64,000 nt of DNA. It comes from Podaxis mareebaensis (lineage: Eukaryota > Basidiomycota > Agaricomycetes > Agaricales > Agaricaceae). The notes under the pieces are model-generated. The model had not been told where the DNA came from. It saw only the letters and a program-made list of their open reading frames with translations, and did not search any database. The position numbers and the translations under genes were made by a program. Positions 18,871 through 61,360 of the stretch are shown piece by piece (position 1 is the first letter of the stretch; each line of letters starts with the position of its first letter). Where the stretch lies: positions 59,713-123,712 of the forward strand of contig JAEUWP010000282.1 of the NCBI GenBank assembly GCA_018524725.1. Reading direction: 5' to 3'.

Positions 18871-19023
18871 CCTTCTCGTGATAGATCTACGGCTTTCGAA
18901 TGTTACTGGAGCTGAACGGAAACAGAATGCTGTTGGGTATTACTCGGAAAGTCCATTGGTATTGTACACGAAACCAAGAAATGAAGTCCTTTTATGCACA
19001 GCTCATGCTCGATGGCTTCCTGC

Positions 19024-31779: not shown

Positions 31780-31828
31780 TTGGCCGACGGCGGCGAAGAG
31801 AAGCATAGGTTCTGCCTACCCCTAGGAG
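31780..31828 (+). pseudogene. Alcohol dehydrogenase remnant, left part
   Basis: The last 49 bp before the inverted-repeat element match exon 7 of the alcohol dehydrogenase at 13070 (DGGEEK and CLPLG are still readable). Homology breaks at CCTAGGAG and resumes at 52511, on the far side of the nested insertion, with the next bases of the same exon. Confidence 0.7.
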
Positions 31829-31866
31829 TATGGAAAGCCGGAGTGACCAGCCTCAGCGGAGCGCCC
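31829..31866. repeat. Left terminal inverted repeat
   Basis: It pairs with 52474-52510, including the shared GGAGCGCCCA at its inner end. Confidence 0.8.
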
Positions 31867-33534
31867 AGAGCCGACTTCGGCATTGCGTACACAGGTGGTT
31901 TCACCAAATGCCAGGCTGCCGGATGATGGCAATACCAAATGTAGGCAATGGGACCTCGAACACTGCATACTTGAATAATTTCTCAATGACATCCTATTTT
32001 ACATAACAAGTACACAGTAAGCAAATAGGCATAAGTTGAGCAGGCGACATTGCCAACTCAAAGATTCAATTTCTTGGGGGGATGGTGAGTGTGCTGGGAT
32101 CACTGGAGTTCTAGTTTGGGAGCTTTGTCAGGCCCACTACTGCTCCTCCTCCTCTTCATTTTCTTTAACATTAGCTTGTTGGCAGGCTGGGGGATGTCAT
32201 CCCCAAAGCTATCCTTGCCTGGGTTGCTATCCAGGAGCTGACCTACCAGAGGAGTTGGGCATCACTCATTCCCACTGGTGTCATTACTAATATCTTCATC
32301 ATCTGGCTCATGCTCCAAAAGCATCCTTTCTACCTCTTCAAGAAAAATCTGCTTTTCTTTATATAATCTCCATGCCTTTGGCAGTCAAGGTGAAGTGACA
32401 AAGCCCATCCCACAGATTGAGAATTGAGTTGTGTGTATATTCTGTGAGTTTTGATAATTGAAGGTAATACTATGCCAAAGCTGTGGCTTCTAAATAATGA
32501 GAGTATTGGAAGCTACTTAGATGTACATACCATGTGAAGCAATGTGGAAATGGCCTCCATTATCCTTAGGCAAAGCTGACTTGTCAATTATGTGACTTGT
32601 ACACTAAGAGATTGAATATATATGTGGTTGATATTCATAGTAAGTGTAGCTATAGATTTGGTATGAATTGAGTCACAGAATATGCTCAACAGAAAAGGAA
32701 ACTCACTGGTAAAACAGTATGACAAGGATTAGATTTTTAACTATGAATCACCTGCCTCTTTATATAGGAGGGAGTTAGCAGATAGTGATGATAATTTGAA
32801 TAGTGAAGGGTTTTATTACATAGATGGGGTCAACAGCAGGTGTGGCTTAGGTATAGTGTACTCTCTGGCAATGCATTACACTGACTCAATATTATAGATC
32901 AATTGCATCACAATGCCCTGAATGACATTGAACTCATGGTTAACTTCTCTGATAACAAAGATGATAGTGACCTTTCAATTCCAGATTGGTGAATAGCACT
33001 TATAGACAAATATATATACTATTATTAATTGCCTGTTAGCCACCCTATCAGCTGTTGGCTACCTTGCAGTTCTCCTCTTTCTCTTGTACAGTCTCCCCAA
33101 ACTTGATATGTATATAGTACTTATACTAGAGAACATGATTGTACAAAAATATTTGGAGAAACTCTCTGTGTACTGTTAGAAAAAAGATTATAGTTCAAGA
33201 AGTGAGTTTCTGAGATAGTGATTTTACCATCAGTTTTATAGATCTTTTCTAATCCTATAAAGGTTCAAGTTTTTGGCATAGTTGTAGGAACCATACTAGA
33301 GAGTGTGTTTGCTCACTTCAGCCTGATATCTTTACAAAGACTCAAGGAATACCAGGATTAGTTTGAGGACTGATATATAAGCATGATAAGAGGTGTATGA
33401 TTTAGAACTCTACCTATATACATAAGTGCCTCTAATGTATGATACTTTATACACAGATCACTATAGCAAGAACATATTGAGACAATGTGTATCAATAAGA
33501 AAAGTCCCATCTGAGGAGTATAGACAGGGAGAAA

Positions 33535-35151
33535 AAGGTCTAAGATGCAATAAGAACTATCTTGCTCAACTAAATAAGTGTCAAAAAGGCAGCTGAAACA
33601 TTCAATATCCCTCAAACCACACTTTGAAACTGTCTTAAAGGAATGCTACTATCAAAGGAAGCCCAGGTCCACAAGAGACTACTCTCACCTGATTTTGAAT
33701 ATACCTTTATTAACTGGATTCAGTTTATAGCTATACTTGGTTACCCAGTATCAAAGAAATCTATCTGGCCAAAAGTCAAGCAACTTATTGGAAAGCTACC
33801 AGACTAAATATGGGTCATCCAGTTTCTCAAGTGACATTCAGAATTGAAGCTATATAAACCAGCTAGCTTGGATCTAAAGCATGTATGAGCATTCAATCAG
33901 CCTAGTATCAAAGAATACTTCAGCTTCTTAGAGAAAGTTCTGAAGGAGAAGAACATATCTTGAGAGAACATGTATAACATAGATGAAAAGGGAATACAGT
34001 TGGGGGGTGGGTGAAAGGGAGCAGGTGTCAAGTACTTATTCTCCTGAGAGGAGCATGCAAAGTATGTAATACACAATGGAAACTTCAAGCTGATTACAAT
34101 AATCAAGAGTTGTTGTGCAGATGGAATATCAATCATGCCAGGATTTGTATTTTTAGAGCAAAGTATTGACATTGATGGTAATAATATTGACCCTAATATC
34201 TGGTAAGTAAATAGTGTAGTTTAACAGAGAAGAGGCTACTTACAGGTTTAAAGCATTGCAATATCTTCAACAGGGTGGACAAATGATTTCCTGTGTACAC
34301 AGTGGTTTGAAAAATGCTTCATACCTCAGACAAAGGCAAAGGAACACCTAGACCACCCAATCTTACTCATTCTTGATGGCCATGGCTCTCATGTTACAGA
34401 TGAGATGATCAATCCTGCTGCTATATATAATATTGAGCTCCTCTGTCTTCTGGCACATACAATACATAAATTACAGCCTCTTAATGTCAGAATATTTAGG
34501 CCATTGCAATGAGCATGGGTGGAGAGATGTAACAAGTATGTGACAAGGATAGAAGTGAGGATGTAGAGATAGCATGTAATAGAAGAATACATAGCAGTAT
34601 GATAGACAGCATTTAAGAGTGATACTATATTAAAGGCCTGGGAGAAGTGTGGAATATGCTCTTTCAATCTAGACATTTTCAAAAGGGAAGATTTTACACT
34701 GAGTTTTAACACATTGATCCAGGTTGAGAAACCTGACTCATTTTCAACTGAACTGCTATCTGACTTTGACATCATTGAAGAGGTTATCTCAGAAGATGCT
34801 TGGGTTAATAATATTAATATACCTGAGCTTAATATTGAGAGTAGTGAGGATGAGGGATGTGAGAGTGAAGGATTAGAGGAAGCAGAAGAGGATAGGGACA
34901 AAGATATTAAACATGAGGCCATTACTGATAGTGATATGATAAGATCACTAATTAATAGCTACTTATCTCCTACACCTGCTACATTCACCTCCATGTCTAC
35001 CCCAGTTCCACCATGTGTTTTTGATAGACAATCAGTACTCCAAACCCTTGGCCCTTATGGCACTCCAATATGGATAAAAATAAAATGTCTTGCACAAACA
35101 TCTTTTATATATGAAAATAAGTTGCTGTGCAGAAAGTTATTTATTATGTAA
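33535..35151 (+). pseudogene. Pogo/Fot1-type transposase remnant
   Basis: The frame shows a Psq-type helix-turn-helix near 33590 (KKAAETFNIPQTTL), then DFEYTFINW and the catalytic region: NIDEKG near 33980, LDGHGSHVT near 34375 and LQPLNVRIFRPLQ near 34480. This is the DDE arrangement of Tc1/pogo transposases. The tail GICSFNLDIF leads into an open acidic C-terminus (34714-35151). Several TGA, TAG and TAA codons interrupt it. Those in recognisable motifs fit changes from CGA, CAG or TGG (for example the stop after IPQTTL, where family members have Arg). The element is inactive. Its terminal repeats were not found. Confidence 0.75.
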
Positions 35152-35232
35152 TTAGTATATATATTACTCTGTTAATGCCTTTCATTTTGCTTGTGTATAG
35201 GATTATTTGAGTGCATAAACTCATATATCCCC

Positions 35233-35277
35233 ATGTAAAAAGCTTTAAGTACTATGTGAGATAGTGTAGATCTCCTG
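35233..35277 (+). repeat. Unit of a roughly 46 bp tandem repeat, left of solo LTR 1
   Basis: It contains AAAAGCTTTAAGTACTATG and GATAGTGTAGATCTCCTG. Three more units follow at 36643-36780 on the other side of the solo LTR, so the LTR inserted into a pre-existing array. Confidence 0.65.
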
Positions 35278-36642
35278 TGTTATGAACCCTCTTAATACAC
35301 CTTGTCACAATATCATCTATAATGCCTTAATCTATGAGCTTGGACTTCCCAATGCCTCCCACTACACCACTCAGGATACAGGTATATCAACTGAAGACCC
35401 CATTCACTATTGCAATAAAGTTTTTATCAATTATTGCCTTTCCAGCTATACATCTTTATTCTTAGAAGACTGGCTGACATCTGGACCACTATTCTACTCC
35501 ACTGACCATATGATGACCAAAATCCTATGCATTACTTGGGAGAATGCTCCCTTCACTCATATCTTTGATCCCAATAGGTTATACATTCAAACCATCCATA
35601 ATAACTTCAATTCTGCCTGGACTTACAGTTGGAAGATGATTCCTTATACTGGAGAACCCATTATATTCCTCCACTCCTATATGATGTATCTGTCTAAAGT
35701 TGTTCCCTATATTATCAAATACAAAGTCATTCATAGACTTTACTTCTGTAAAGTAGAAGTCTACTGCCTTGACCCTAACTCCAACAAACCTCTGGCTATC
35801 CCTCCCCATCATTCACAGCTTCCTCCCCTCTACAGTATTGACTCTAATATCTCTGGCATCAATGAGTCAGAACCTGCTACAGATCCTCCTCTATATCCAC
35901 CTCCCTACATCACTACAGACATTTCCTCATCATCATTGCCATCATCCTCACTACACTGCAGCCCAATGTATGAGTCAGACTCTACAGACTCATCCCCCAT
36001 TAGAAACTTCACCATTCCCAGTTCTGCCTCATCTCCAAACTTATATTCCTCCAATTCTACTGATAGACACCTTCACCCTGATATGGGCTTGTAAGATATC
36101 TCTAGTAAATAGTTCTCTCTTATTTTTACTACTACAGACTCTTTATCTCATATTCTTGTATTCTGTCCAAACTCTGACTTGAACTATTTCCATATCTAGT
36201 TAGTTTCCTTTCTTGACTAGTTTCTATCTTTGTCTTAGTTTCTATTCTCATCTTGCTCTGCTCTGTAGTTATACTTCTATTAACTCTTAGACTTATAGCC
36301 TTACTTCATTATAGTTACCTTTTTAGGGTATTAGAAGTAAAGCTTAAATAGCTGCTCATATACTGGAAGTGCAAGCTTCTTATATTCTCAAATCTCAAGT
36401 TATTATTTACCTTTAACTTCTAATTGATATTAGTCCATGATTAGTGTGGTAGTAAATGTCTTATTGGTCATACTCTCAACTGATAGGCATTTGACCTCTT
36501 AAGTGTGCTTAACTGGACACTTATCTTGCTACCTTCTTATTGTGATCTTTCTTGCTAGATCCTAGCACCTCTGCAAACCATCTAGTGAGATAGCTACCCC
36601 CTAGCAAAGCTTAAGTGACTGGTGATAAGGACTAACCTAACA
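35278..36642 (+). mobile_element. Solo LTR 1 (CpG-free copy)
   Basis: It starts TGTTATGAACC and ends CCTAACA, 1365 bp, flanked by the 5 bp duplication TCCTG (35273-35277 and 36643-36647). Copies 2 and 3 share the ends and the full sequence. No internal retroelement region is attached. It carries the reading frame listed next. Confidence 0.88.
35282..36094 (+). CDS. LTR-encoded 270-residue reading frame
   Basis: The frame starts at the fifth base of the LTR and runs through 60 percent of it. Recognisable blocks shared with copies 2 and 3 include ITWENAPFTH, the Asp-Pro after it, IHNNF, WKMIPYTGEP and a Pro/Ser/Asp-rich C-terminus ending HLHPDMGL. No known domain was recognised. It stays open here even though every CpG in this copy has been lost. 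In a full-length element it could be the C-terminal part of a protein that begins in the internal region, because the frame is also open at the LTR's first bases (T-GTT-ATG). Expression is unknown. Confidence 0.55.
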   Translation: MNPLNTPCHNIIYNALIYELGLPNASHYTTQDTGISTEDPIHYCNKVFINYCLSSYTSLFLEDWLTSGPLFYSTDHMMTKILCITWENAPFTHIFDPNRLYIQTIHNNFNSAWTYSWKMIPYTGEPIIFLHSYMMYLSKVVPYIIKYKVIHRLYFCKVEVYCLDPNSNKPLAIPPHHSQLPPLYSIDSNISGINESEPATDPPLYPPPYITTDISSSSLPSSSLHCSPMYESDSTDSSPIRNFTIPSSASSPNLYSSNSTDRHLHPDMGL

Positions 36643-36780
36643 TCCTGTGCAAAAAGCTTTAAGTACTGTGCAAGATACTGTAGATCTCTCATACAAAAAA
36701 CTTTAAGTATCACACAAGATACTGTGGATCTCTCACACAAAAAACTTTAAGTACTATACAAGATACTGTAGATCTCCCAC
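36643..36780 (+). repeat. Tandem repeat of about 46 bp, three units
   Basis: The units contain AAAACTTTAAGTA, then CAAGATACTGT and GATCTC, with small variations. It continues the array at 35233. Confidence 0.65.
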
Positions 36781-36885
36781 ATGTATTATTGAGGTTTGTT
36801 CACAAAAAAAAAACATATATCTTAATTCCATTGTTTTTTTTCTCTTTACCTTCTACATCTGAGTCACTCTTTTTTGTTATCCCCA

Positions 36886-38294
36886 TGTCATCTGTCTCTA
36901 CTGATCAATCACCTGAACTGCCTCCATGTCATCAGAAAGAATCAAAGGCCAAAGCAGTATATATTAAATCCTCTGATGTTGAGAAAGAGGTGAGATTTCA
37001 TTATGCATTCAGAAAAATTGGCACTGACTTGAATTAGGTTGACTTCTTTGATAAATCTGACAATTCAATGAGTCTTCCAGCCCCAAGTCAAATTTGAGTA
37101 TACAAAGCTGGGACTATGAGTACTTCCACAGCCTATAAGAAAGCACAGAAAATTATCAACTCACTTGCCACTGCCACTTCCAATGCATGCTCACTTGCAA
37201 CAGATGAAGACCTGGAGCATACTCATAAAGAGACTAATGCTGGTCTGAAACATTATAGGAAATCATCAATAAAGACCATCACATCAGTTTCTACTCATCT
37301 AGGACTAGTAATACCTATCTCCAAGCCCAAGCCCAAGCCTAGGCTTGTTGTGAATTGCCTTATCATCCTGCTTCCTTTAAGGGCCTCTAGATTGACTTCC
37401 AAAGTTCATAATTCCAGTCATTTTAGAACCTCACACTTGACTGATATCAATTTCAAGTACACCAATAGCCTAGAGCATTATATCAGTGCAATCATCTTAC
37501 TCTCATTTAGTATTGATTGGATAATTATAGATTTTATTCTTATCTTATCCTTTTCTAATCTATCTCTATTCAAAATGAACATAAGAACACATTTTTGTAT
37601 CACAATGAAAGGCAATATTTTTTACATGATTATGCTAACCTGGACTCCCTTCTCAATCAACTCAAGAACTCACATCTTTGTAACCAGGATCTTAACATCA
37701 ACCACTTAGCTGATTGCAAGCTAGCAGTCATGATGGATTGCTTAGCTGGTAAACTATTAATAATTAACAAAACATAGTCAAATGAGGAGCTGACCACCTA
37801 TTTCATAGAGTTATTTCCTGAGGTTTTTATTTAGTATAAGCAGTGTATTGACCTATACATCAGCACTGCTAGTGAGTCTAGTGGTAGCCTATTTGAGAGG
37901 TGCCCTTAGTACCTCATTGACTCTAGATATAGGAAGTTTAATGTCATCTACTTTAAAGATATGAATACTCTAAATGGCAAGCAGGTCATCAAGTATATAT
38001 TGAAATAGAAAACAGGTGATGGAAAACAGAAGTTATTCCTTAGTAAGTCTCTTAATCTATCTTATTGATTATTTACTCAGTGCTTTTTCAGCTCTCAATG
38101 TACAGATTCCTGAACATCTTGAAGAATTTCTAGACCTAGATAATGGAGATTCAGACTCATTGTCTCAAGAGGTCATAGGCATCAAATATGAGATTATTGA
38201 GCTAAGCTCTGACATTGAGGATGATAGTAAGTCTTCCTATATTTGTTACTTCTCTATTGACATAGCTAATTACATATATCAGAACCCAATATAA
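36886..38294 (+). pseudogene. Unidentified repeat-encoded protein remnants
   Basis: Open frames at 36886-37037, 37116-37709, 37595-37777 and 38016-38294 lie in different frames on the same strand. Segments such as LNINHLADCKLAVMMDCLAG and the acidic EEFLDLDNGDSDSLSQE look protein-derived. I do not recognise the family. They sit inside the CpG-free block and are broken by stops, so I treat them as a dead transposon gene. Confidence 0.35.
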
Positions 38295-38809
38295 ATATAT
38301 ATGTCTGTCTACTATATAAGAAGCCCAGGCTTGTAGGAAATAATAGTGTGTTCCTTATTTTTTCTCAATTATTAACTAATAATTATTTAGTTAGTGTCTG
38401 AAAGTAAGATAGCAATCTCAACCCTCATTTCCAGTCCCTTAGTACCTAATATCTCCACTGCATCCTCAACTCCTGTTCTGGTCAAGCATACAGTAAGTCC
38501 TTTCTGGGTAACTGGAGATCTATTTGCATAGTTCTCATCATTGCTGATTATTAGCAACACATCTTCTGACCTCTTCACTGGACCTTCAATGAAGTAGCCT
38601 ATAGTTGACAATGATAACATTGATTTTCTGTTGTAATGAAGTCACCTGACATGGATATCATACTTATCTGCTCTTGATATCTTACTAGCCTTTATGGATA
38701 ATATACCTAAATATCTAGCTTACAGTCATTTTTACAAATATACTAGAACTTATCTAATAAATATACCATTAGTTTGTAAAACTATTTTATAACATCTCAC
38801 ATGGCCTCA

Positions 38810-39005
38810 ACTTTGTGTGTGGCTTTATAATATTTGTGTAGCTTCAATTTTGTGTATAGTTTTATGATATTTTGCACAGCTCTAATTTTGTATGTAGCTT
38901 TATAATGTTTTGCATAGCCTTAATTTGCATGTGGCTTTATAATATTTTGTATATGGCTTTATAATATTTTATATACAGCTTTATAATATTTGTATATAGG
39001 TCATA
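38810..39005. repeat. Degenerate AT-rich tandem repeat
   Basis: Five or six imperfect repetitions of GCTTTATAATATTTTGTATA-like sequence with unit length near 35 bp. No coding signal. Confidence 0.5.
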
Positions 39006-39280
39006 CCTGGTATATGGGCTGCAAATAAACTATATTATATAAACAATCTGATTATTATATAATGATATATCCAATTTCTGCATAGCAACTTGTTTTCATG
39101 TACAAAAGATGTTTCATGCAGGACATTTTATTTTTGTCCATGTTAGAGCACTATAGGCCCCAAAGGATCCTTAGTATTACCAAACAGACCTGTAACACAA
39201 CTTATTGAATACCTGAAGTGTTATGAACCAGCCTGGTACCTCCTGCCACAACGTCATTTATCATGCACTAGTCCACGAGC

Positions 39281-40095
39281 TGTTACGAATATTGCAGACT
39301 CCGAGACCACCGAGGAGACCGAAGAGCCCGAACAGCAGAATTACGAAGAATGGGATTTGATGAAGCACATGATGGTAAGCCTCTGGCAGGAAACCACAGA
39401 GTTGTGACAGACACTTGATTGGGAAATGTGCGAGAAGGTAGACGAAGCGTGTCGTTACCACGGAGTATACTTCCCATGCGATGACAACTTGTAATCAATC
39501 ACTGAACTTACTACTTCCTATTTCAGACACTCTTCTATATTAGGACAAGGTATCAGTTTCGTCTACTCTGTCATATTTATGTTCGCATCAGTTATGTTCG
39601 CTCACGCAGACTTTCACCCTATGACATATGCACTCCTCTTCCCTACTCCATATGCCCTATGCCCATCTGTCTTATGAATTCCTTTCTATATGCCCTCCTC
39701 TTATTCAACTTCTATGTTACTATTGATCTACTTCCTAAAGTAGTCATAGGACTTGTATATGTACACCGCCTGGACATGTAGATTAGCGAAGTCTAATCTT
39801 AACGCGTGTTACCTACTCTTGGGTCTTGAATAAGTCCAAGTCTAACATAGCATGTTAAGTCTACATCTCTTCGCCCTTGCGTGCAGCTTTTCCCTCCAAG
39901 GCTTCTCTTTAGCATCTTGTCCTACAGAGTGTGCAATCTATATGAGTTCGCTGCCTAGAGACAACGTGAACAGCCACCTGAGGTTAAACAGAGCAGCTCC
40001 TTCAGACCTGTATAGGACAAGGACCTCTGCTCGTCTCACTTACAAGGATAGGCTCTGACTTAGGTGTCGCTTAGCCAAAGAAGAACCTTGTAACA
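39281..40095 (+). repeat. Left LTR of the gypsy element
   Basis: Begins TGTTACGAAT and ends CTTGTAACA. It differs from the right LTR at 25 positions by my count, all transitions and no indels. Confidence 0.93.
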
Positions 40096-40394
40096 TCAAG
40101 ATTAGACTTCCCTTGTGTGCCAATCCCACGTTGTAACTTTTGCCCCAACTACCATTCTCAATTGCTTCGCGCTGTGCGTGTAGTCACCCCAAGGTTCTCA
40201 TTGCTTCACGCTGTGCCATTGGGACGTCATTGGTTCTCATTGCTTCACGCTGTGCCTAAACAACACCAAACCCCCCCTTCTTGACTGTAATTCGCCCACT
40301 CATTGTTTGGTGGTCTGACAAGGAAGTCTGTAATACACCCACTCAACGCTTGGTGGTCTGTCGGAAGAAAACCCTCTGACTGTAAATCGCGTCG

Positions 40395-42667
40395 ATGTCT
40401 GTCAAGGTGAAGTGTTCTCGATCATCAGAAATTGAAAGGCGTTCTCGATCAACAGAAATCGAACCCCATTCTCGATTAGCGGAAATTGACGAAAGTTCTT
40501 GATCACCTGAAATTGACGACCCTCAGCCATATGACCATTCTTCTATTTATTCTACCTTATCATCTTCCTGGAATTCCTCGCAGGACAATATTTCTATTTT
40601 CTCCTTAATTCCTCCCAGCCTTCGACACCTCGACCTCACACCTGATCAGATTCAAGAATTGATTCAAGCCCTCGTCGAGAGGAACCTTGAATGTCCTTCC
40701 ACTCCCCCACTCCCCTCACCATTTCAGGAGAAGCAGCCGCTTTATTGGAACAAGTTAGAGCTCAGGAATCTGACAGCAGTGATGAAACAGCCCGACGATC
40801 ACCGTCCCCAATCTCGCCAATCGTCTCTCCAGCTAGAACAAGACCTCTGAGAAGAGTCAGATCTCTTAACCTTGATGAAGTTGCCCCTTGGGAACTGTGA
40901 CTTACTGCCAATATTAGAGGAAGAAGAGAAGCAGCTAGAGAACGAAGACAACAAATGTTGACCACTGTCACTATCCCTCCCACTGTTGTACAACCACCTC
41001 AGCAACTCGCTCGACCTCCAAGTGCAGCCTCAATTCCACCCCTGTACCAGCAACAACCATCTCAACACCCTACTCCCACTCCCCAGCAGCAAGTTCAACC
41101 ACCCCCACAACTGCAACCACCAGTTCCTAGAACGGACTCCACAGCACCTGTCAATCAAGCCACCACCTTCGCATTTGGAAGCAATATCGTGCCCCTGAAC
41201 CAAAGATTCTTCCAACAACCCCTCTTCATTAACCCTGCAATTCCCGGACATCAAGCAACTGGAATTGTACAAGGAAATCAGGGAAACCTGTCTCAGACTG
41301 GAACAGCTCAGCCAACAAACCTGCCACAAGCAGGAAGCCCTCACCCACCTCCTGGACCACCTCCACCTGGATGACCACCTTCAGGACCAGGACAACCAGG
41401 CCTGAACCCACCACCAGGACCACCAGGAGTACCACCTCTGCCGCCACCAGGAGCACCACCCCCAGGACCTCCCGCACCAGGACAACCAGGAGCACCTCCA
41501 CCAGGTTTCAGTTTTCCCCAACAAGCACAAATGCCTGCTGCCCCTTCCACACCAAAGTATGAAGCACCACCCTTGTATGAAGGAGACCCATGGAAATACT
41601 TGGCATGGAAACAGCAGTGTGCCCTGTACATCATTGCCAACCAGCATAAGTTCCCTACCAACCATGATGCCATCATATTCATGCTCTACTACATTGGAGG
41701 AGCAGTGGAACCATGGAAAACAGAATACCTCCGCCAACATAACTTCAATGGAGTACTACATCTTGGAACATTCAACACATTCCAAGACAAGCTCGACAGA
41801 GTCTTCCTCCCTTACAACTACACTGAAGACGCTCTCCGACGACTCCACACTCTCAAGCAAAAACGAAGACCAGTGGACCAGTACATCTCTGAGTTCAAAG
41901 TCCTTGCAACCCAAACAGGGATGGTCAACCCACAAGAACTCATCTACAGGTTCAGAGAAGGACTGGACTTCGAAATTGGCCTCAAAACCATTGCCCTTAG
42001 ACCCAGACTGGACATTGACATCTGGTTCGAAGCAGCAAGAGCAGTGGAAGAACAACACTGCATGGAGAACAACTATTGAGCTAGCCATGCCCGAGAACGA
42101 ACCAATAGAGCTGTACCCCAACCGAAGAAGAAGGCATCCTACAATATGAATTGGTCACAAAGCCAGACATATAAAGATCCATACGCCATGGATGTGGATA
42201 ACTTGGCACTGGCACTCTCTGAAATCGTGCTTGAAGAAGACTATTCCTTGGAAGAAGAATCCAATGTGGAAGTCAATGAGGTTGAAGAAAATCAGGACCT
42301 CCTGGAGACATTTCTTCAGAACATCCTCACCCCAAAAATGCGTAATGACCTCAAGCAAGGGAAATGTTTCAACTGCAGACAAACAGGACATTTTGCTTGA
42401 GAATGTCTGAAGAAATCAAATCCGTCGCAATCAATGCAAAACCTACTGCGAAACACCCAAGCAAAGGTTTCCAAGCATAAGCCACCCGCACCCCCTAAAT
42501 TACCCCGTGACAAGGAGAAGCAACAGAAGCGAAAAGCAATGTTTGCCCGGATCAACGAGATAATTCAGGAAGCAGACGATGAAGAAGTCACTGAAATCTT
42601 CACTGAATTCTCAAACTCCACCAGTGCTCAAGCAAAGGAGATCCAGGATTTTGCCTCAGACAACTAG
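40395..42667 (+). pseudogene. Gag of the gypsy element
   Basis: A first frame from ATG 40395 (SSEIERRSRS-type repeats) shifts near 40740 into the main frame. This has a Pro/Gln/Gly-rich stretch (40955-41520) and a retrotransposon gag domain: YEGDPWKYLAWKQQC, then FLPYNYTEDALRRL and YRFREGL. It ends with a CCHC zinc knuckle (CFNC-x4-H-x4-C, 42365-42406) whose aromatic position is a TGA (42398-42400). Another TGA at 42077-42079 and one at 41372-41374 also interrupt the frame. Each stop lies one transition from Arg or Trp codons. Confidence 0.78.
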
Positions 42668-42669
42668 CT

Positions 42670-45600
42670 TCCACGTCTAGATCGTCTAAAGGAAAGAAAG
42701 ATGCACCAAAGGACAATTCTTTTTCCTCCCCTTTTCTATTCTCTAATGGACTGGTTTCTGATTCCTATCCCTGTCCAAAGGACGAAATTATGCCCCCTTC
42801 CTTTTCTCAGAATGAAGTACCCGTTTCTGAATTATGTTTAAAGACTCACCAATCCAACACCTTTTATTGCCCAACCACTGTGCATCTCTCTGAAAAATCT
42901 GTGGAAGACCTTGCACTGATAGACTCCAGAGCAGGACGAGATTTCATCGACCACCAGTTGGTTGAAAAATGGAGCCTGAAAACGTCACCATTGAAGAAGC
43001 CAATCAAAGTCAGGAATGCCGACGGAACCCTGAACAAAGATAAGCAAATCACTCATTTCATTACCCTTGATTTCACCATCTACGGAAAACAAATGAAGAT
43101 GGATTTGCAGGTGATTAATCTAGGACAACCTAGAATAATCTTGGGAATTCCTTGGCTCACTAGGTACAACCCCGACATTGACTGGTTGAAACGAACCCTC
43201 TCATGGAGACATTTGACAGAAAACACCACACTCTCTTTGATAATCGACGACACTCTCTCAGAAATATATGTGAATGAGCTTGAAGAAGATTTCTCCGAGG
43301 AAAACTTCACCGAGATAAATGCCAAGACCTCCTACTCTCAAATACTCGCTCAAACAGGAGAACAAAAGAAGGAGACCAATCCTGAGAAGATAGTTCCCCA
43401 GGAATTTCACGAATATCTCGACCTTTTCTCTCAAAAGAAAAGCGAGAGATTTCCTCCCGCCAGACAATGGGACCACTGGATTGAAACCAAAGAAAGCTTT
43501 ATACCAAAGGCTTTCCCCTCCTACAAGCTCTCCCTTGCTGAAGAAGAGGAGCTCAACAAATTTCTCAAAGAAAACCTTGCGAAAGGATATATCAGACCCT
43601 CGAAATCCCCTATGGCCTCACCATTTTTCTTCATCTCAAAGAAAGATGGAAAACTTAGGCCCTGTCAGGACTATCGCTACCTCAACGAGCATATGGTCAA
43701 AAACGGCTATCCTATTCCTTCAATCCAATCCATACTCAACAAGCTATGAGGCTCGAAATACTTCACCACTCTCGATGTCAGACTCGGCTACAACAATGTT
43801 CATATTGTTGAAGAAGACCAATGGAAAGGAGCATTCTGCACCCACCAAGGATTATTCGAACCCACAGTCATGTTTTTTGGAATGTGCAACAGTCCAGCAA
43901 CATTTCAAAACATGATGGATACCATCCTCACCCCTCTCATTGTGCAGAATAAAGTCATCATTTATATGGATGACATCCTTATCCACGCCCCTACCAAAGC
44001 CGAACTGTGAAAAACAACGAAAGAAGTATTCAAGATCTTATGGAAACACAACCTCTACCTCAAACCAGAGAAATGCGAATTCGAAAAGACGACTCTCACC
44101 TACCTCAGGTTCATCATCTCTCCAAACGAAGTCAAGATGGATCCCACCAAACTGAAAGGAATAGCAGACTGGCCTACACCCAAGACAGTCCGCAACGTAT
44201 GAAAATTCATCAGGTTCTGCAATTTCTATCGCAAATTCATCAAGCATTATGCCCACCTGTCCTTACCCCTTAACGCACTTCTAAAGAAGTCCAACACTCC
44301 TTTTAAATGGACAAAAGAAGCTGATGACGCATTTAGAAAATTAAAGCAACAGTTCCTGGAAGAACCTGTTCTAATTACCCCAGACCCCTCAAAACCATTT
44401 GAAATTCAAACTGATGTGTCCACTTACGCATCTGGAGCAGTTCTCCTCCAGAAAGACTCAAATGGTGTGCTACATCCATGCTTCTACTATTCAAAACCAT
44501 TCTCCCCAGCCAAATGGAATTACCACGTGTTGGAACAAGAATTCCTAGCCATCATCCATGCATTACAAGAATGGCGTCATTACATCGACGGATCACCTTA
44601 CAAAACAACAATATGGATGGATCATGACAACATTATTCATTGGGCCAAACCATCAAAGCTATCAAGACAAACCATTCGATGGTCTGCTGTGATCAGCGCC
44701 CATAAAATCAAGATTCACCATATTCCTGGATCTAAAAACTGCACCGCTGATGCTTTGTCCAGAAGACCAGACCACACCTCAACAAGCAAAGACATGGAAC
44801 TTGAAACAACGAAGGCAGCCATTCCACTAGAGAAGTTTCAGACTAGTGACTTTACCAATGCTAATGTGAATTTAGCTAATTCAGGAGAAAATGGCGAAAT
44901 CAACATCGTGGACCCCAATGTTGAGAATGAAGCCCAAAAAGGGAAGGATGGAACCATAGAACTGGATCAAGAAGGTCACATCCAACTCCCCATGGACTCC
45001 GTGCTTAAGAAGCGCTTATTGCAGCATGTACATGATGCACCAGCTGCAGGACACCCCAGAGTTGCTGAAACCCTCAGGAAACTTCAAGAATACATCACCT
45101 GGCCCAGCATTCGTGCCTACATCACGAACTACATGAAAGGATGCCCCACCTGCCAGCAGTACAAGATCAATAGACAACCCTTGAAGCCTCCCCTCCAACC
45201 GATTCCAGGTCCCCGATCATCCCGGCCTTTCGCCTAGATGTCCATGGACCTCATCACCAACCTCCCCGAATCCAACAGATATGATGCAATATTGTCCGTG
45301 GTGGACCACGGTCTCATGAAGGGGATAATCATAGTACCCACTTCCAAATCCACCACTGCCGATCAAATCGCAGACATCTTGATCAAGCATGTGTTCATTT
45401 GCACAGGAATACCTGATAAAATCATTTCGGACAGAGATCCCCAATTCATGGCCAAATTGATACAAGCTATGTTCAAGAAGCTGAACATCGATCACACCCC
45501 CTCGACCGCCTATCACCCTCAGTCGGACAGATCAACCGAACGATTTAATCAAGAAATCGAGATGTACCTATCAGCCTATTGTGCTCAAAATCCCCACACA

Positions 45601-46269
45601 TGGTCTGAACACCTCCCTTTAGTTGAATTCTCCCATAATTCCAGAACACACGCTAATCGCCAGCAAATGCCATTTGAACTTATGTATGGCCACCCCCTCA
45701 AAGCCTTCCCAACTGAGCTAGCACTGACGAACTCCCCATCGGCTGAAGAAAGAATGAACTGGATTATTAATATCCGAGAAGCAGCAAAAATAGCACATGA
45801 GACTTCGCACAAAATTATGACAGAACAGACACAAATGCACATGTTACCAAAAATAGAACCTGGCCAGAAAGTATGGCTCGACGCTTGAAACTTGCCCATT
45901 CAGGTCGCATCAAGGAAAATCGCTGCCCGTTGACTAGGCCCGTTCACTGTCATTAGGAAATGTGGAAATGTATCCTACGAGCTATCTCTTCCCAAGAGCT
46001 GGAAGATCCACAACATCTTTCACGTTCAATATCTCTATCCTGTCACCAAAAACGATGTTTATGGCAAACACTTCTCAAAACCCCCACCTGACCTCATCCA
46101 AGGAGAAGAAGAATGGGAAGTCGAAGCCATAGTGGTGCATCACTACACCAGAAGACGAGGTTTAGAGTTTCTAGTGCATTGGAAGGGATACCCCGATTCG
46201 GAATGAACCTGGCAAAATTCGACAGACCTGCACAATTCCAAGACCCTCCTCAATGCTTATAAACTATGA
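42670..46269 (+). pseudogene. Pol polyprotein of the gypsy element
   Basis: One frame runs from about 42670 to a TGA at 46267. Protease: IDSRAGRDF near 42920 (DSGA-like, Gly changed to Arg). Reverse transcriptase: SPFFFISKKDGKLRPC, then YMDDILIHA near 43965. RNase H: DVSTYASGAVLL near 44413. Integrase: HPRVAETLRKL, CPTCQQYK, SMDLITNLP, SDRDPQF and TERFNQE, giving the zinc-binding and DDE residues. Chromodomain: WEVEAIVVHH, LVHWKGYP near 46110-46205. Seven premature stops (43747, 44008, 44200, 45235, 45886, 45931, 46204) are six TGA and one TAG, each one transition from a sense codon that fits the context. Confidence 0.88.
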
Positions 46270-47317
46270 TACAACCTCCACTGAAGCTCAAGCTACTCGA
46301 ATGTCTTTCACTTCTAATGACACTATAACCACTGACTACCTAACCACTCCAACTTCGAACACCTCTTTTACTCGAGTGTCATCCCAAACTCTCATCTCAG
46401 TTCCACCTACTCCCCTCACCCACAAACTGACACCTTCCCCAGAAGATCGCCCCTCTACCCCCGAGTCCCTCCACTATGAAGAGCAACAAAGACAAGTCAC
46501 TGACATCACAGAAGTCAGGCGCCAAATATCCGAGGTGTTCCAACTACATGAAGCACAAAGCACCCAAAGGCGAACCCTTTCGTCTCATGCCTTACAAGAA
46601 GCAGGTGATGCCGCTCTTTCTGCCACAGTACGACTCGACTCTTTATACAAAGATGCCTTTTCCCAAGCAAGGACCACTCTTGAGTGTGGTAATCAATCAA
46701 CTGAAGTATTCGACTCTTTCAGGTCAACTTGGTTTAATGCAATACATTGCCAGCTCCATGCTAACAGACTGGCCGACAAAGTCAGTGCCTGCTTTACTCA
46801 GGTTATTGACTTGCCAGGACTTGATCAAGAAAGGCAATACCTCCGAGGCACCCACTGCATGGTTCTGCAAGTGTGAGAGGATGTATCTGCTTTTCTCCAC
46901 CCACAAATTGGACTTAGATCTGGCAATGTTACTTGCAACCCCTTGCCCCGATGGAACCAAGGAGCCACTTCAGTACCTGAGCAACTTCATGATGTGGATC
47001 GACAACACACCGAAACAAGAACTTCTGGAGATACAGAGCTTGCTATCACAGACAGCCCTATCCTCACCCTATCCGACCAACACGCCACCTGCTATCAATG
47101 TAGCAATGTGGGTCATAGGGCAGATCAATGCGACAGATACTATTGCCCCTTCTGCTGCCACTATGCCCCTGGACACTACCAGAAGTACTGTTTTCTCAAT
47201 CCCATCAGAACCGGCCCGCCATTCCACTATGCCAGAATCCTCGCCGACCAAGCCCAGCTCGCCATGGCCAGACTCACCGAACATGCCGTCATTACTGGGC
47301 AGCAGGATGGTGGATGA
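46253..47317 (+). pseudogene. Downstream frame A with zinc knuckle
   Basis: It starts at ATG 46253, overlapping the end of pol by 17 nt. It is Ser/Thr/Pro-rich at first, then helical (RRQISEVFQLHEAQ), and after a single TGA at 46874 continues to a cysteine-rich module: CYQCSNVGHRADQC followed by CPFCC and HYQKYC. The first part resembles a CCHC knuckle with altered spacing. A cysteine module after the integrase is unusual for gypsy elements. It overlaps frame B over about 840 bp. Confidence 0.55.
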
Positions 47318-47981
47318 GGAATTAGCGCTCCTGCAAACAATCGATCCCAAACTGCTCATTCCCCAACTCTCCCTGTACCAACTTCCTCCTCCTCTGCAGC
47401 TCGACCCCCATCGTCAGGAGACTTGAGATCTCCTCCGCCCATTCGTCTGTGCCGCAACCAACATCACACTCTCCTTCGGGCAGGCCTCACCACTGCCGAC
47501 AACATCTGAGGACCTAGATTTGCTGACGAATGCCATGACTGATCTCCTCCACGCCTCTCCTGTCACACCATCAATACCACCATCATCCCCAGAGCCTCCA
47601 ACTGATGCATTCGCCCTCGACGACGGTCAGCTTGATCAATCGAATGCGCCCTCCAAAGTGTCATGGACGACCCAGGAGAGGGAATGTATGAATATCCTTA
47701 CGATGATGAAAATGTTACTGGGAGTCATTGAGTCGAGTGAGGACACTCGACCTTATGAAGGGGATCATGTTACGAATATTGCAGACTCCGAGACCACTGA
47801 GGAGACCAAAGAGCCCAAACAGCAGAATTACGAAGAATGGGATTTGATGAAGCACATGATGGTAAGCCTCTGGCAGGAAACCACAGAGTTGCGACAGACA
47901 CTTGATTGGGAAATGTGCGAGAAGGTAGATGAAGTGTGTCATTACCATGGAGTATACTTCCCATGCGATGACAACTTGTGA
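46476..47981 (+). CDS. Downstream frame B, running into the right LTR
   Basis: The frame is open from 46476 to 47981 except for one TGA at 47424. It has hydrophobic and helical segments (LLSVVINQLKYSTLSGQLGL, then MYLLFSTHKLDLDLAMLLA), a Pro-rich middle and an acidic end. The last 71 codons lie inside the LTR (47768-47981) and include EEWDLMKHMMVSLWQETTEL. In the left LTR the same stretch has one TGA. It has no recognised domain; an envelope-like role is not supported because no signal peptide or clear membrane anchor is visible. Confidence 0.5.
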
Positions 47982-48582
47982 TCAATCACTGAACTTACTA
48001 CTTCCTATTTCAGACACTCTTCTATATTAGGACAAGGTATCAGTTTCGTCTACTCTGTCATATTTATGTTCACATCAGTTATGTTCGCTCACACAGACTT
48101 TCACCCTATGACATATGCACTCCTCTTCCCTACTCCATATGCCCTATGCCCATCTGTCTTATGAATTCCTTTCTATATGCCCTCCTCTTATTCAACTTCT
48201 ATGTTACTATTGATCTACTTCCTAAAGTAGTCATAGGACTTGTATATGTACGCCGCCTGGACATGTAGATTAGCAAAGTCTAATCTTAACGCATGTTACC
48301 TACTCTTGGGTCTTGAATAAGTCCAAGTCTAACATAGCGTGTTAAGTCTACATCTCTTCGCCCTTGTGTGCAGCTTTTCCCTCCAAGGCTTCTCTTTAGC
48401 ATCTTGTCCTATGGAGTGTGTGATCTATATGAGTTTGCTGCCTAGAGACAACGTGAACAGCCACCCGAGGTTAAACAGAGCAGCTCCTTCAGACCTGTAT
48501 AGGACAAGGACCTCTGCTTGTCTCACTTACAAGGATAGGCTCTGACTTAGGCATCGCTTAGCCAAAGAAGAACCTTGTAACA
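47768..48582 (+). repeat. Right LTR of the gypsy element
   Basis: 815 bp, the same length as the left LTR, TG...CA ends. It contains the C-terminal codons of downstream frame B. Confidence 0.93.
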
Positions 48583-48823
48583 CGAGCTTGGACTCCCCAA
48601 TGCCTCTCATTCTACCACCCAAGATACAGGTATACCAGCTGAAGACTCAACTCACTACCGCAACAAAGCTTTCACCAATCGTTGCCTTCCTGGCCACGCC
48701 TCTCTATTCTCTGAAGACTGGCCAATGCCTGGACCAATCTTCTATGAGACCAACTGCATGATGACTGAGATACTACGCATCACTTGGGAGAATGCTCCCT
48801 TCACCCACATCTTCGATCCCAAC

Positions 48824-50207
48824 TGTTAGGTTGGTCCTTATCACCAGTCGCCTAAGCTTTGCTAGGGGGCGGCTATCTCACTAGATGGTTCGCAGAGGTG
48901 CTAGGATCTAGCAAGAAGGATCACGGTAAGTAGGTGGCGAGGCAAGTGTCCAATTAAGCACACTCCAAGGTCGAACTTCTATCAGTTGAGAGTATGACCA
49001 GTAGAGAGTTTACTACCACACTGATCGTGAGCTAACGTCAATCCAGAGATAAAGCAAGAGCAATATTCTGAATTTGAGAATATAGGAAGCTTGTGCTTCC
49101 AGTACACGAGTGGCTATTTAAGCTTTACTTCTAAGGTCCAATTCCAGTAACTATGACAAAGTAATGCTATGAGTCTGAGAGTCAATAGAAGCATAGCTAC
49201 GGAGCGGAGTGAGACAAGAATAGAATGAGACAAGAATAGAAACTAGACAAAAGTAGAAACAGAGACAAGAAAGGAAACTAACTAGTTAAGGAAATCATAC
49301 AGAATAGAGTTTGGGCAGGATACAGGAGTCCAAGGCAGAATGTCTGTAGCAAGACAGAAGAGAAGCTATTTACTGGTTATACTATAAGTCCATATTGGGG
49401 TGGAGGTGTCTGTTAGAAGAGTCGGAAGAGTAAGAGTCAGGAGACGAGGCAGAACTAGGAATGGGGAAGTTGCCTGTTGAAGGCAATGAGTCAGGAGAAT
49501 CTTCATGGAGGAAGATAAGGCTGCGGTGCAGGGACGATGATGATGATGACGATACATCACCGGTGACATATGGCAGTGGATATGGAGGAGGATCGCCAAT
49601 GGGTTCTTCTGGATTCAATTCATCAATACCTGGAACATTGGAGTCAACACTGTGGAGGGGCGGAAGCTGAGTACGACAGGGAGGGATGGCCGGAGGTTTG
49701 TCGGAGTTAGGATTGACACGGTAGACTTCTACTTCTCAAAAGTAGAATCCGTGGGTGACTTTGTATTTGATAATATGCAGGACAACTTTGGGCGGGTACA
49801 TCATGTAGGGGTGAAGGAATACAATGGGTTCTCCGGTGTAAGGGATCATCTTCCAACCGTGGGCCCAGGTGGAGTCAAAGTTGTTATGGATCATTTGAAC
49901 ATATAACCCATCAGGATCGAAGACGTGAGTAAAGGGAGCATTCTCCCAAGTGATGCATAGTATTTCTGTCATCATACGGTTGGTCTCATAGAAGAGTGGT
50001 CCAGGCATTGGCCAATCTTCAGAGAATAGAGATGTGTGGCCAGGAAGGCAACGATTGGCGAAAGCTTCATTGCGGTAGTGAGTTGAGTCTTCAGCTGGTA
50101 TACCTGTATCTTGAGTGGTGGAGTGAGAGGCATTTGGAAGTCCAAGCTCGTGGACTAATGTGTGATAAATGATATTGTGGTGGGAGGTACCAGGCCGGTT
50201 CATAACA
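48824..50207 (-). mobile_element. Solo LTR 3, inserted into solo LTR 2
   Basis: 1384 bp in reverse orientation: TGTTATGAACC starts at 50207 and the CCTAACA end is at 48824. The target duplication CCAAC flanks it (48819-48823 and 50208-50212), and the host sequence is solo LTR 2. Its reading frame is open from 50203 to 49736 and again from 49618 to 49382, so it carries a stop or short frame break relative to the other copies. Confidence 0.9.
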
Positions 50208-51286
50208 CCAACAGGTTATACATTCAGACAATCCACAATAACTTTGACTCCACCTGGGCCCACAGTTGGAAGATGATCCCCTATGCCAGAGAACCCATTG
50301 TATTCCTCCATCCCTACATGATGTATCCACCCAAGGTCGTCCTGCATATTATTAAATATGAAGTTGCCCATGGATTCTCCTTTCAAGAAGTAGAAGTTTA
50401 TCGTGTCGATCCTAACTCTGACGAGCCTCTGGCCATTCCTCCCCATTGTACTCAGCTTCCGCCCCTCTGCAGCATCGACTCCAATGTTCCAGGCATCAAC
50501 GAGTCAAACTCAGAAGAACCCATCAACAATCCTCCTCCATACCCACTGCCATACATCACCACCAACATATCATCATTGTCATCATCCTCTCCACACCACA
50601 GCCTAATCTTCCTCCATGAAGATTCCCCTGACTCATTGCCTTCAGTAGGCAACTTCACTGTTCCAAGCTCTACATCATCTCCCAACTCAATCTCCTCCAA
50701 CTCCTCTGATGGACATCTTCACCCTGATATGGACTTGTAATATAACTAAGTGAATAGCTTCTCTTCTATCTCATTACAACGATTCATCCTGTGTTCCTGT
50801 ATTCCGCCTGAACTCTGCCTTGTACAATTTCCTTAGTTAGTTAGTTTCCTTTCTTATCTCTATTTCTATTCTCATCTTAGTCTATTCTTATCTTGCTCTG
50901 CTCTGTAGTTTTGCTCCTATTGACTCTCAGACTCATAGCCTTACTTCGTCATAGTTACTGGATTTGGACCTTAGAAGTAAAGCTTAAATAGCCACTCATG
51001 TACTGGAAGCGCAAGCTTCCTATATTCTTAAATTCAGAATATCGCTTTCGCTTTATCTCTGGATTGACATTAGTTCACGATCAGTGTGGTAGTAAACTCT
51101 CTATTGGTCATATCCTCGACTGATAGAAGTTCGACCTCTGAGTGTGCTTAATTGGACACTTGCCTCGCCACCTACTTACCATGATCCTTCTTGCTAGATC
51201 CTAGTGCCTCTATGAACCATCTAGTGAGATAGCTGCCCCCTAGCAAAGCTTAGGCAACCAGTGATAAGGACCAACCTAACATGAAG

Positions 51287-52131
51287 TCTCAATATCAACA
51301 ACAGCTTCCCAGTTCACTGGAGTCTCAAGAACTCAATAACCTGCTTCAACTAACACTATCTTACACCTCATGGATGCAACTTCAGAAGGAAATTGTGTCT
51401 CTTAAGGCATAAGTGGCTCAACTCCACAGCCAACAAAACCTGGCAAAAACACATGCAATTTTAATTGAAGCTGAATACACATTGCTCAAGTACTAGATTT
51501 ACCAAAAATCTCTTTGTTGCAAATGTCCAAAACTCAAGATATTCCACCAGCTTCTCACTGGTGCTGAGGCTCTCACTGAATGTGCTTGACAGAAGGAACT
51601 GGCAGCTGCCAAGGCTCAGGAGAAGGTAGTAAAAGAAGTCCAGCACACTATAGCTGCAGCTCAACATCAAGCTTGCTGTGCACAGGTAATGCATGCTGGC
51701 TTTTTATTTACTAAATTATTTTCCAGTATGTGCTGCAATGACCTACTTGAGATCACCCACTTGCTTTTACTCCCTGAAACTGGCAAGGTCTCTGAACTCC
51801 ATGAATCCATTTTATGACACTTTGATATGCATCCAGAGCTCAAGAACCTCCCTCACTATGCTCAACTCTTTCCTCATACTGCTATCCAAACCAGTGGCCC
51901 ATTCCCTTCCCTCCCAGCCAGTTCCACCACTGTCCAGGTGCAGCCTTGTAATAATATACTATATTTATCAACATTTTCCTCTCCTTACTATCCACCACCT
52001 TTTTAATAGTTACTAACCTAACATAATTTCCACTTCACTTATATTAAGCATCCATATACTACATTCTCACTAATATACATTGAGGTGTCTCTTCAGTCAT
52101 ATGCCTTGTGAGGTTTTTGAGACCATGATGC
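51287..52131 (+). pseudogene. CpG-free transposon remnant with coiled-coil coding
   Basis: A frame with stops encodes a Gln/Glu/Ala-rich C-terminus (LIEAEYTLLKY, HQLLTGAEALTECA, KELAAAKAQEKVVKEVQ). This resembles the coiled-coil tail of basidiomycete pogo-type transposases and could be part of a second such element. There is no CpG from 51168 to 52131. The part after 51690 has no clear coding signal. Confidence 0.4.
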
Positions 52132-52473
52132 CGATGCAGAGCCTCAACTCGGCTGTGAGACAGCCATGATGTTTGGGTGGCCAACTGATGGTTCAGTTGA
52201 CTTGTGCTCATCAGAACAGTTCCGACATAGTCATCCAGCAAGATAAAATCCCAAAAAATTCATAAACATTTACTGAAGACATTTCCGCATATGTATGTGA
52301 GATTTCAATGGAAAATACGCCATGACAGAGGAAGAGCGTGCACATCTGAAAAGTGGCCAAGTGGTGATCAATGAAGTATATCTACTCTCTCGTAATTCTG
52401 CATCAGATTCAGCATCAGGGTACCAGAGGTCCTGTTCGGCAGCATCGGTAACAACCGGCCGCAATTACAGTAG

Positions 52474-52510
52474 TGGGCGCTCCAGAGGCTGGTCACTCCG
52501 GCTTTCCATA
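52474..52510. repeat. Right terminal inverted repeat
   Basis: Inverted copy of 31829-31866, ending CTTTCCATA directly before the TAGGAG target duplication. Confidence 0.8.
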
Positions 52511-52970
52511 TAGGAGCGGATCACTGGATCGACTTTATCACTTGCCAGGACATCGCGACTGAGATTAAGTGCCTTACGGCGCAGGGGTGCACATGTGGCT
52601 GTCGTTACTACGGCTTCGGTACGTTCTCCCCAAGGTCTTGAGTCAGTATGTTCACTACATCAACGACTTGCAGTAGACTGGATATGCTCGGGTAATCAAT
52701 TGTCTTCGCGACAACGGACGTTCGGTGACCGTTGGCTTGCCCGCAGAGGTCTCTCTTGATGCTAGTATCTTCTTTATGGTGTCCAAGGGTATAACTGTCC
52801 ACGGCTCGTATATTGGGAACCATTAAGGTGCGATCGAGTGTGTCGATATTACGGCGACAGGTGTTGTGAAGGTTTACCACGAGCTCGTGCCGATCGATGA
52901 TCTTGAGAGGGCTTACTACAGCCTGGGTGAAGGTAGGATTGTTGCCCATGTTGTCTTGGCTTTGCAATAA
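52511..52970 (+). pseudogene. Alcohol dehydrogenase remnant, right part
   Basis: It resumes exon 7 of the dehydrogenase at the target duplication (GADHWIDF-type sequence), keeps the last intron position (GTACGT near 52620) and ends with the same ALQ stop at 52968-52970. A frameshift around 52585 and several substitutions show it is dead. With 31780-31828 it was one gene copy. Confidence 0.8.
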
Positions 52971-59552: not shown

Positions 59553-60059
59553 TAGTATCATGTCACATCCAAGAAATACCACTGATGGCAAACACTGACA
59601 ATGCGTATGGTTTTAACAAAGGTGCCAATCACCAGCACTTGTGGATGTATGGGGTATAAATATCCAGAGCATTTTACAAGTGGTTTCTGCTCCACACCTC
59701 ACCCCTTCATCTCTCCATACCCATCCTACAGGTGTTTAAATCCACTCTTCTATCTCGTCCTGGGGAAGCTGGTGAGTCATCTATGTGACCTCCGAGTAGC
59801 CTTGGTACTACAAACCAAAGACCACATACTACCCTTGTGAAATTTCTGCATGTCCAGCAAAAAAAGTAATAATCCACTCAATATCAACTGTTCAACCAAA
59901 CTTACAGGACTGTGATCAGGTCTCAAGCATTGGGTGACAGCAGATCATATATCCACACATTTGACTTTGAGAGATTCAGTATGTATATACACAATTTGTT
60001 CATGAGTAATGTCTCATAGTATTTTCAGTCATTAGTCTTCTTGAACAAGAGAGGTCACA
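59553..60059. other. Repeat-flanking sequence without a gene
   Basis: No gene seen. CpG is absent from 59795 onward, so the transition into decayed repeat DNA lies here. Confidence 0.4.
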
Positions 60060-61352: not shown

Positions 61353-61360
61353 TTTTGTTG

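What the first reader, a model, noticed from the sequence alone, without database searches (positions are those of the whole stretch)
32047..39251. 7.2 kb without a single CpG
Line-by-line reading found no CG in this block, nor in 51168-52131 or 59795-61656, while neighbouring genes are rich in CG. C and G are both common in these blocks, so a rough independence estimate would predict of the order of 200 CpGs in the largest. All three blocks coincide with dead repeats or a dead NACHT gene. This fits near-complete loss of methylated CpG by deamination, or a CpG-directed RIP-like process, with sharp edges at the insertion boundaries.
Basis: seen in the sequence. Interest (0 to 1): 0.75.

Follow-up and report, generated by a model that had tools for sequence, protein, structure and literature searches.

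The report
CpG-stripped transposon in a mushroom-like fungus
A dead jumping gene in a fungal genome has lost every CG pair, most likely because a repeat-targeting mutation process changed its C's to T's: a known kind of genome defence, here in an unusually complete and datable form.

Summary
Blocks 1 and 2 are mainly two halves of one DNA transposon (31829-52510; 39-bp inverted ends, 6-bp target duplication), split by nested insertions including a Gypsy-type retrotransposon. Block 3 is a NACHT-gene relic plus the start of another repeat.

Passive loss of methylated CpG does not explain block 1 well. A copy on contig C217 still has its CpGs; 58 of 58 aligned ones are gone from the window copy, yet the two differ by only 4 transversions in 2122 sites. 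The window copy's private changes are 67 C-to-T, 1 reverse, 1 transversion. CpG goes completely, then CpA > CpC > CpT. Flanks are normal; mutation tapers inside the element, so edges are not at the insertion boundaries. PF00145 genes found: two DNMT1-RFD-like, one DNMT5-like, one DNMT2-like, no RID-like one. Best reading: RIP-like, CpG-first hypermutation in an agaricomycete, a kind already reported (Ganoderma, Tricholoma). Block 3 could be passive decay.

The parts
31829..52510 (.). Host DNA transposon (about 7.3 kb net of nested insertions) holding block 1 and most of block 2; other copies or parts on C290, C15, C382, C217, C99 and, with partly different interiors, C277, C56, C126
   Evidence: Alignments; inverted ends; copies
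31829..31867 (+). 5' terminal inverted repeat, CpG-bearing
   Evidence: 92% over a 39-column alignment to 52510-52474
52474..52510 (-). 3' terminal inverted repeat
31823..31828 (.). 6-bp target-site duplication, left copy (TAGGAG)
   Evidence: by the same reading C290 has TGGCAC and C277 ATATAG
52511..52516 (.). 6-bp target-site duplication, right copy (TAGGAG)
31829..32046 (.). Spared 5' end: CpG kept, nearly identical to the C290 copy
   Evidence: 99.5% over 31829-32044, 8 CpG in each; alignment
32047..39251 (.). Block 1, 0 CpG
33547..33642 (+). HTH_psq remnant of a transposase, frame broken by stops
   Evidence: Pfam PF05225, E 4e-4, at its cut-off; 8 TGA, 6 TAA, 3 TAG in residues 496-950 of the frame
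34255..34545 (+). DDE_1 transposase core remnant
   Evidence: Pfam PF03184, E 2e-13
35278..36642 (+). Nested 1365-bp repeat, 0 CpG here; the same insertion is in the C290 copy, absent from C15
39220..51278 (.). Nested insertion, taken as younger, only partly CpG-depleted (o/e 0.50 overall)
39281..48598 (+). Gypsy-type LTR retrotransposon (label from domain order); LTRs 39281-40112 and 47768-48598; CpG o/e 0.52
   Evidence: gag, protease, RT, RNase H, integrase zinc finger (plus strand only, two of three frames only to about 45280); LTRs differ by 28 transitions and 1 transversion
51168..52131 (.). Block 2, 0 CpG: last 114 bp of a nested repeat, then the host transposon from 51279
52132..52510 (.). 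Spared 3' end, CpG kept
   Evidence: 52139-52511: 94.9% to C290, 12 CpG in each, 10 of them shared
59795..61656 (.). Block 3, 0 CpG: NACHT relic, then the start of another repeat at 61211
60135..60617 (+). NACHT/NPHP3_N remnant
   Evidence: Pfam PF24883 E 3e-18; PF05729 E 4e-4, below its cut-off
61211..63798 (.). Other dispersed repeat, nearly CpG-free
   Evidence: About 40 places (40 of 131 candidates scored); CpG counts

Best explanation
Block 1 and most of block 2 are a dead DNA transposon that a RIP-like hypermutation process has stripped of CpG. Inferred: the mutator recognises repeats (by homology or by the repressive chromatin on them), works through a cytosine methyltransferase and deamination, and acts in rounds, probably around the sexual cycle. 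With no RID-like gene found, a DNMT1-RFD-type enzyme is the candidate.
For: C217 copy versus window: 58 of 58 aligned CpG lost (27 CA, 19 TG, 12 TA), 4 transversions and 265 transitions in 2122 sites; CpA 112/339, CpC 27/201, CpT 21/277. Private changes (C-to-T / reverse / transversion): window 67/1/1 in 1698 columns; C290 62/1/2; C15 51/9/1; C382 37/10/0; C217 only 4 C-to-T with 3 transversions (Fisher p 0.002-0.006). Lower bounds on CpG loss per transversion about 600 (all transversions) or 1100 (window lineage only), against 154-252 in six chosen, partly depleted copies of the 1365-bp family. Edge taper: window/C290 transitions per 150 bp from the 5' end 0, 2, 3.3, 2.7, 6, 7.3, 12%; 10.7, 4, 2, 0% at the 3' end. 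One-kb flanks have CpG o/e 1.11 and 1.09 at the window, 0.94 and 0.98 at C290. LTR pair 28 transitions to 1 transversion: 19 at CpG, 8 at CpA, 1 at CpC. Control: four stretches of window gene duplicates, 67-81% identical, have transitions:transversions 202:76, 109:30, 262:121, 75:90 and keep CpG.
Against: Most CpG loss in window, C290 and C15 is shared by descent (TG-versus-CA conflicts 2 to 5 per pair against 35 to 39 agreements), and C382 agrees with the window more often than not (25:12), so complete stripping is shown for few independent events. In the 1365-bp family CpG retention falls with transversion divergence (Spearman -0.50, p 0.01, n 26), as a clock would give, and that family shows no clear edge taper. 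The taper is not universal: C126 has mutated ends and CpG-free flanks, and toward the 3' end the window/C290 rates run 4.7-6% before rising to 10.7% and then falling. The NACHT relic has no partner above 66% identity over more than 150 bp, so homology dependence is not shown. No strand-coherent runs were seen. No methylation data exist here.
Confidence: 0.7

Rival explanations
1. Passive decay: CpG methylation by DNMT1-RFD and DNMT5 silences the repeats, and 5-methylcytosine deaminates over time until no CpG is left.
For: The genome carries two DNMT1-RFD-like genes and a DNMT5-like gene; CpG loss tracks age in the 1365-bp family; block 3 shows TpG/CpA excess without TpA excess (TpA o/e 0.63), as CpG-only decay predicts, and its nearest relatives are old.
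Against: 58 of 58 CpG lost with 4 transversions in 2122 sites; 37/199 CpA and 15/128 CpC mutated privately in the window copy beside one transversion. A 2026 review gives basidiomycete non-CG methylation as 0.38-2.47% (PMC13297926, passages).
Confidence: 0.22
2. Classical RIP with a RID/Masc1 methyltransferase, as in Neurospora.
For: Directional C-to-T change confined to repeats.
Against: The PF00145 search gave 5 matches in 4 loci (7 candidates scored), read as two DNMT1-RFD-type genes, one DNMT5-like and one DNMT2-like; no further gene. CpG, not CpA, is preferred.
Confidence: 0.04
3. The element was CpG-poor by descent or selected against CpG, with no mutator at work.
For: CpG-free interiors sit at different target duplications with shared TG/CA states, so they seem to have moved as such.
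Against: The C217 copy has CpG at 61 sites where the mutated copies, as far as they align, have TG, CA or TA (one CC in C382); stops fill the transposase frame; CpG-free copies keep gaining C-to-T changes.
Confidence: 0.04

Closest known systems
CpG-preferring RIP-like mutation of transposons in Ganoderma sinense (PMC4457147; passages seen)
   Same: Agaricomycete; C:G to T:A more than 87% of point mutations in repeats; CpG preferred, CpA second; TEs methylated, mainly at CpG
   Different: Reported as genome-wide proportions; no copy-pair dating, CpG exhaustion or edge taper in the passages I saw
CpG hypermutation in Tricholoma matsutake (PMC6980582; passages)
   Same: CpG pattern in repeats, no rid/dim2, two masc2 copies
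CpG-biased hypermutation in Rhizoctonia solani AG8 (PMC4014442; passages)
   Same: C-to-T with 3' G bias; CpG mutations more frequent near repeats
   Different: Heterozygous SNPs spread over genes and repeats alike; here confined to the repeat, flanks normal
Neurospora RIP (RID-dependent)
   Same: Directional C-to-T in repeats
   Different: CpA-preferring and RID-dependent (PMC4352252 and PMC12543289 passages); here CpG first and no RID-like gene found
TpCpG hypermutation of Pucciniomycotina (Horns et al. 2012; paper not held; known here only through PMC4014442 and PMC6980582 passages)
   Same: CpG target in basidiomycete transposons
   Different: No TpCpG preference: 5' T is the least mutated in 8 partial copies

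Membership tests
RIP-like hypermutation | Strong excess of C-to-T (G-to-A) over other changes among repeat copies | tested here: met
   67 C-to-T, 1 reverse, 1 transversion private to the window copy
RIP-like hypermutation | Confined to repeats, single-copy neighbours spared | tested here: met
   Flank CpG o/e 1.11/1.09 (window), 0.94/0.98 (C290); shorter flanks 0.79/0.69 (C277), 0.83 (C15), 0.44 (C56, 192 bp); C126 flanks are CpG-free and were not tested for being repeats
RIP-like hypermutation | Dependence on a homologous partner | tested here: inconclusive
   Transposon is multi-copy, but the NACHT relic has no close partner
RIP-like hypermutation | Occurs premeiotically in the sexual cycle | not testable with these tools
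   Needs crosses
Classical RIP (Neurospora type) | RID/Masc1 methyltransferase present | tested here: not met
   a gene split into many exons could be missed, and classes were read from Pfam domains, not from a tree
Classical RIP (Neurospora type) | CpA preferred | tested here: not met
   CpG 58/58 sites lost, CpA 112/339 cytosines
Pucciniomycotina-type hypermutation | TpCpG preferred | tested here: not met
   C-to-T at CpG by 5' base in 8 partial copies of the 1365-bp repeat: A 123/254, C 64/152, G 62/184, T 112/352
Passive 5mC decay | Changes limited to CpG and in step with age | tested here: not met
   Not met for block 1; compatible for block 3 and partly for the 1365-bp family
Passive 5mC decay | Elements carry CpG methylation | not testable with these tools
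   No methylation data

The most novel reading that the evidence does not exclude
An active, RID-independent, burst-like mutator in Agaricomycotina (a subphylum where, as PMC6980582 says of Horns et al. 2012, RIP was reported not to exist) that first exhausts CpG and then works down CpA, CpC and CpT, driven by a DNMT1-RFD enzyme. Transposons survive it as corpses: their CpG-bearing ends are spared, so CpG-free interiors still jump and are mutated again.
Probability: 0.4. Interest if true: 0.65.

Novelty: new member of a known kind. Interest (0 to 1): 0.42.

Why it matters
Papers seen here disagree on whether CpG loss in basidiomycete transposons is RIP or decay of methylated CpG: one speaks of RIP, one favours methylcytosine deamination, others leave it open. 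This locus allows a direct test: a CpG-bearing and several mutated copies with almost no transversions between them, three stages in one window (partly depleted retrotransposon, CpG-stripped NACHT relic, CpG-stripped and CpA-eroded transposon), and a mutated zone that stops inside the element. The spared ends also bear on how mutated elements stay mobile.

Tried and rejected
Onygenales or Orbiliomycetes as source (first guesses from CpG-poor repeats) were dropped after the methyltransferase set and the DNMT5-like hits. Rhizoctonia was considered from genome size and the AG8 paper; the named fungal hits (Leucoagaricus 62%, Tulasnella 57%, Ceratobasidium 53%, best 120 of 596 listed, most unnamed) do not favour it. 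A first protein search with the F-box gene beside the block gave 2 hits and no name. The species remains unidentified.

A Pogo/Tc1 label for the host transposon was not adopted: DDE_1 and HTH_psq suggest it, but the 6-bp target duplication does not fit TA insertion (recalled). The superfamily is left open.

Strand-coherent mutation tracts were tested and not found. An edge taper was sought in the 1365-bp family and not found, apart from a lower last bin. Rows dropped: the 1365-bp alignment (27 rows) left out hits aligned over less than 1240 bp, the window's own locus L006, and L044, which repeats L029. The ratio 154-252 rests on 6 of the 26 non-reference rows, chosen as partly depleted. (114 pairs, 15547 transitions, 1618 transversions; 60 longest printed) uses overlapping, non-independent pairs and is only background. 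The 16 two-kb samples come from contigs already seen in earlier outputs, mostly long ones: 14 of 16 had CpG o/e 0.69-0.98, two had 0.29 and 0.11.
Full report
Observation. The three blocks are exactly CpG-free and are the three longest CpG-free runs in the window. Expected counts are 233.7, 39.3 and 76.2, and 500 shuffles of each never fell below 188, 26 and 59. TpG+CpA is in excess in all three. Stretches 1-31828 and 52512-59200 have CpG near expectation, with longest CpG-free runs of 119 and 139 bp.

Where it is. The window lies in a 36.95-Mb, 429-contig genome. Among the named relatives of its DNMT5-like protein are Leucoagaricus, Tulasnella and Ceratobasidium, besides algal, chytrid and slime-mould records (best 120 of 596 listed, most without a name), so the host is taken to be an agaricomycete; the species is not known. 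Its PF00145 matches fall in four loci: two with DNMT1-RFD matches and BAH matches below Pfam's cut-off (C109, C384), one whose only solved-structure match is Rad8 (7r76; that this is the Cryptococcus Dnmt5 structure is recalled), and one that I read as DNMT2-like without a further test. No RID-like fifth gene was found; an exon-split gene could have escaped.

Anatomy. Block 1 and most of block 2 belong to one DNA transposon, 31829-52510, with 39-bp inverted ends and a 6-bp target duplication, TAGGAG here, TGGCAC at C290 and ATATAG at C277. It holds HTH_psq and DDE_1 remnants; residues 496-950 of that frame contain 17 stops. A 1365-bp repeat sits at 35278-36642; the C290 copy has it at the same place and C15 lacks it. 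A 12-kb insertion at 39220-51278 contains a Gypsy-type retrotransposon and pieces of the same 1365-bp repeat. Block 3 is a NACHT/NPHP3_N relic (2 stops in the 365 codons examined) running into another dispersed repeat at 61211.

Hypermutation, not slow decay, for block 1. The C217 copy covers 36820-38947 and still has CpG. At its CpG sites the window copy has CA 27, TG 19, TA 12 and CG 0 of 58 aligned; C290 (59), C15 (61) and C382 (61, one of them CC) also keep none. The window and C217 differ by 265 transitions and only 4 transversions in 2122 sites. Of C217's other cytosines, the window has T at 112/339 CpA, 27/201 CpC and 21/277 CpT. Private changes give the same picture without taking C217 as the ancestor: window 67 C-to-T, 1 reverse, 1 transversion; C290 62, 1, 2; C15 51, 9, 1; C382 37, 10, 0; C217 4 C-to-T with 3 transversions (its 62 'reverse' columns are those where it alone keeps C or G). 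Mutation load is therefore copy-specific, not clock-like (Fisher p 0.002-0.006). The lower bound on CpG loss per transversion is about 600 with all transversions and about 1100 with those of the window lineage, against 154-252 in six partly depleted copies of the 1365-bp family.

Rounds and mobility. Window, C290 and C15 agree on TG versus CA at most informative former CpG sites (35:2, 39:2, 36:5); C382 agrees less (25:12 with the window). So most CpG was lost before the first three separated, and the CpG-free interior reached new sites (different target duplications at the window and C290). Afterwards each gained dozens more C-to-T changes, now at CpA, CpC and CpT.

Edges. The first 216 bases are 99.5% identical to C290 with 8 CpG in each, while 32047-35230 is 91.7% identical with 250 transitions and 6 transversions. 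Transitions rise over several hundred bp at the 5' end; at the 3' end they run 4.7-6%, peak at 10.7% and fall to 4, 2 and 0%. C277 and C56 keep some CpG in the same end region; C126 has lost all there and its flanks are CpG-free too. One-kb flanks are normal at the window (o/e 1.11, 1.09) and C290 (0.94, 0.98); shorter flanks give 0.79/0.69 at C277, 0.83 at C15 and 0.44 (192 bp) at C56. The taper may reflect the mutator, the chromatin, or survival of copies whose ends still work; divergence gained after the copies separated also tapers, which argues for one of the first two (inference).

Stages and contrary results. The nested retrotransposon is partly depleted (CpG o/e 0.52) with LTRs differing by 28 transitions to 1 transversion. 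Block 3 shows CpG loss without TpA excess, and its nearest relatives, at C255, are old (66% and 64%; 74 and 66 transversions), so passive decay would suffice there. In the 27-row alignment of the 1365-bp family copies carry from 0 to 59 CpG; retention falls with transversions (rho -0.50, n 26) and there is no clear edge taper. Four stretches of window gene duplicates at 67-81% identity keep CpG, with transitions:transversions 202:76, 109:30, 262:121 and 75:90.

Literature (passages only). CpG-preferring C-to-T change in repeats is described in Ganoderma sinense and Tricholoma matsutake; CpG-biased SNPs, not limited to repeats, in Rhizoctonia solani AG8 and Heterobasidion parviporum; PMC4352252 links CpG signatures to Masc2-like genes. 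Searches listed no paper that I recognised, from titles and abstract starts, as dating complete CpG loss with copy pairs in Agaricomycotina; most subscription journals are not held.

Verdict. A real and extreme case of a known kind of process; the useful part is that it separates bursts from decay and shows CpG-free interiors at new sites between spared ends.

Noticed in passing
window 14081-19470 and 52511-57463: Duplicated gene blocks (67-81% identical in pieces) lie on both sides of the transposon region and keep normal CpG; the right-hand duplicate begins exactly where the transposon ends (52511).
   Followed up: partly
window 59294-59555: Tandem repeat with a 50-bp unit just left of the NACHT relic, in the low-CpG margin of block 3.
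   Followed up: no
window 22073-22158 and 29571-29668: tRNA-Val gene with a 79% inverted relative at 29668-29571 that the tRNA scan did not call.
   Followed up: no
L010 (C382:124365-129567): 5203 bases without one CpG, including sequence beyond the matched element.
   Followed up: partly
window 61211-63798: Dispersed repeat with about 40 scored places in the genome, nearly CpG-free here; its kind was not identified (no Pfam match in the three forward frames).
   Followed up: no
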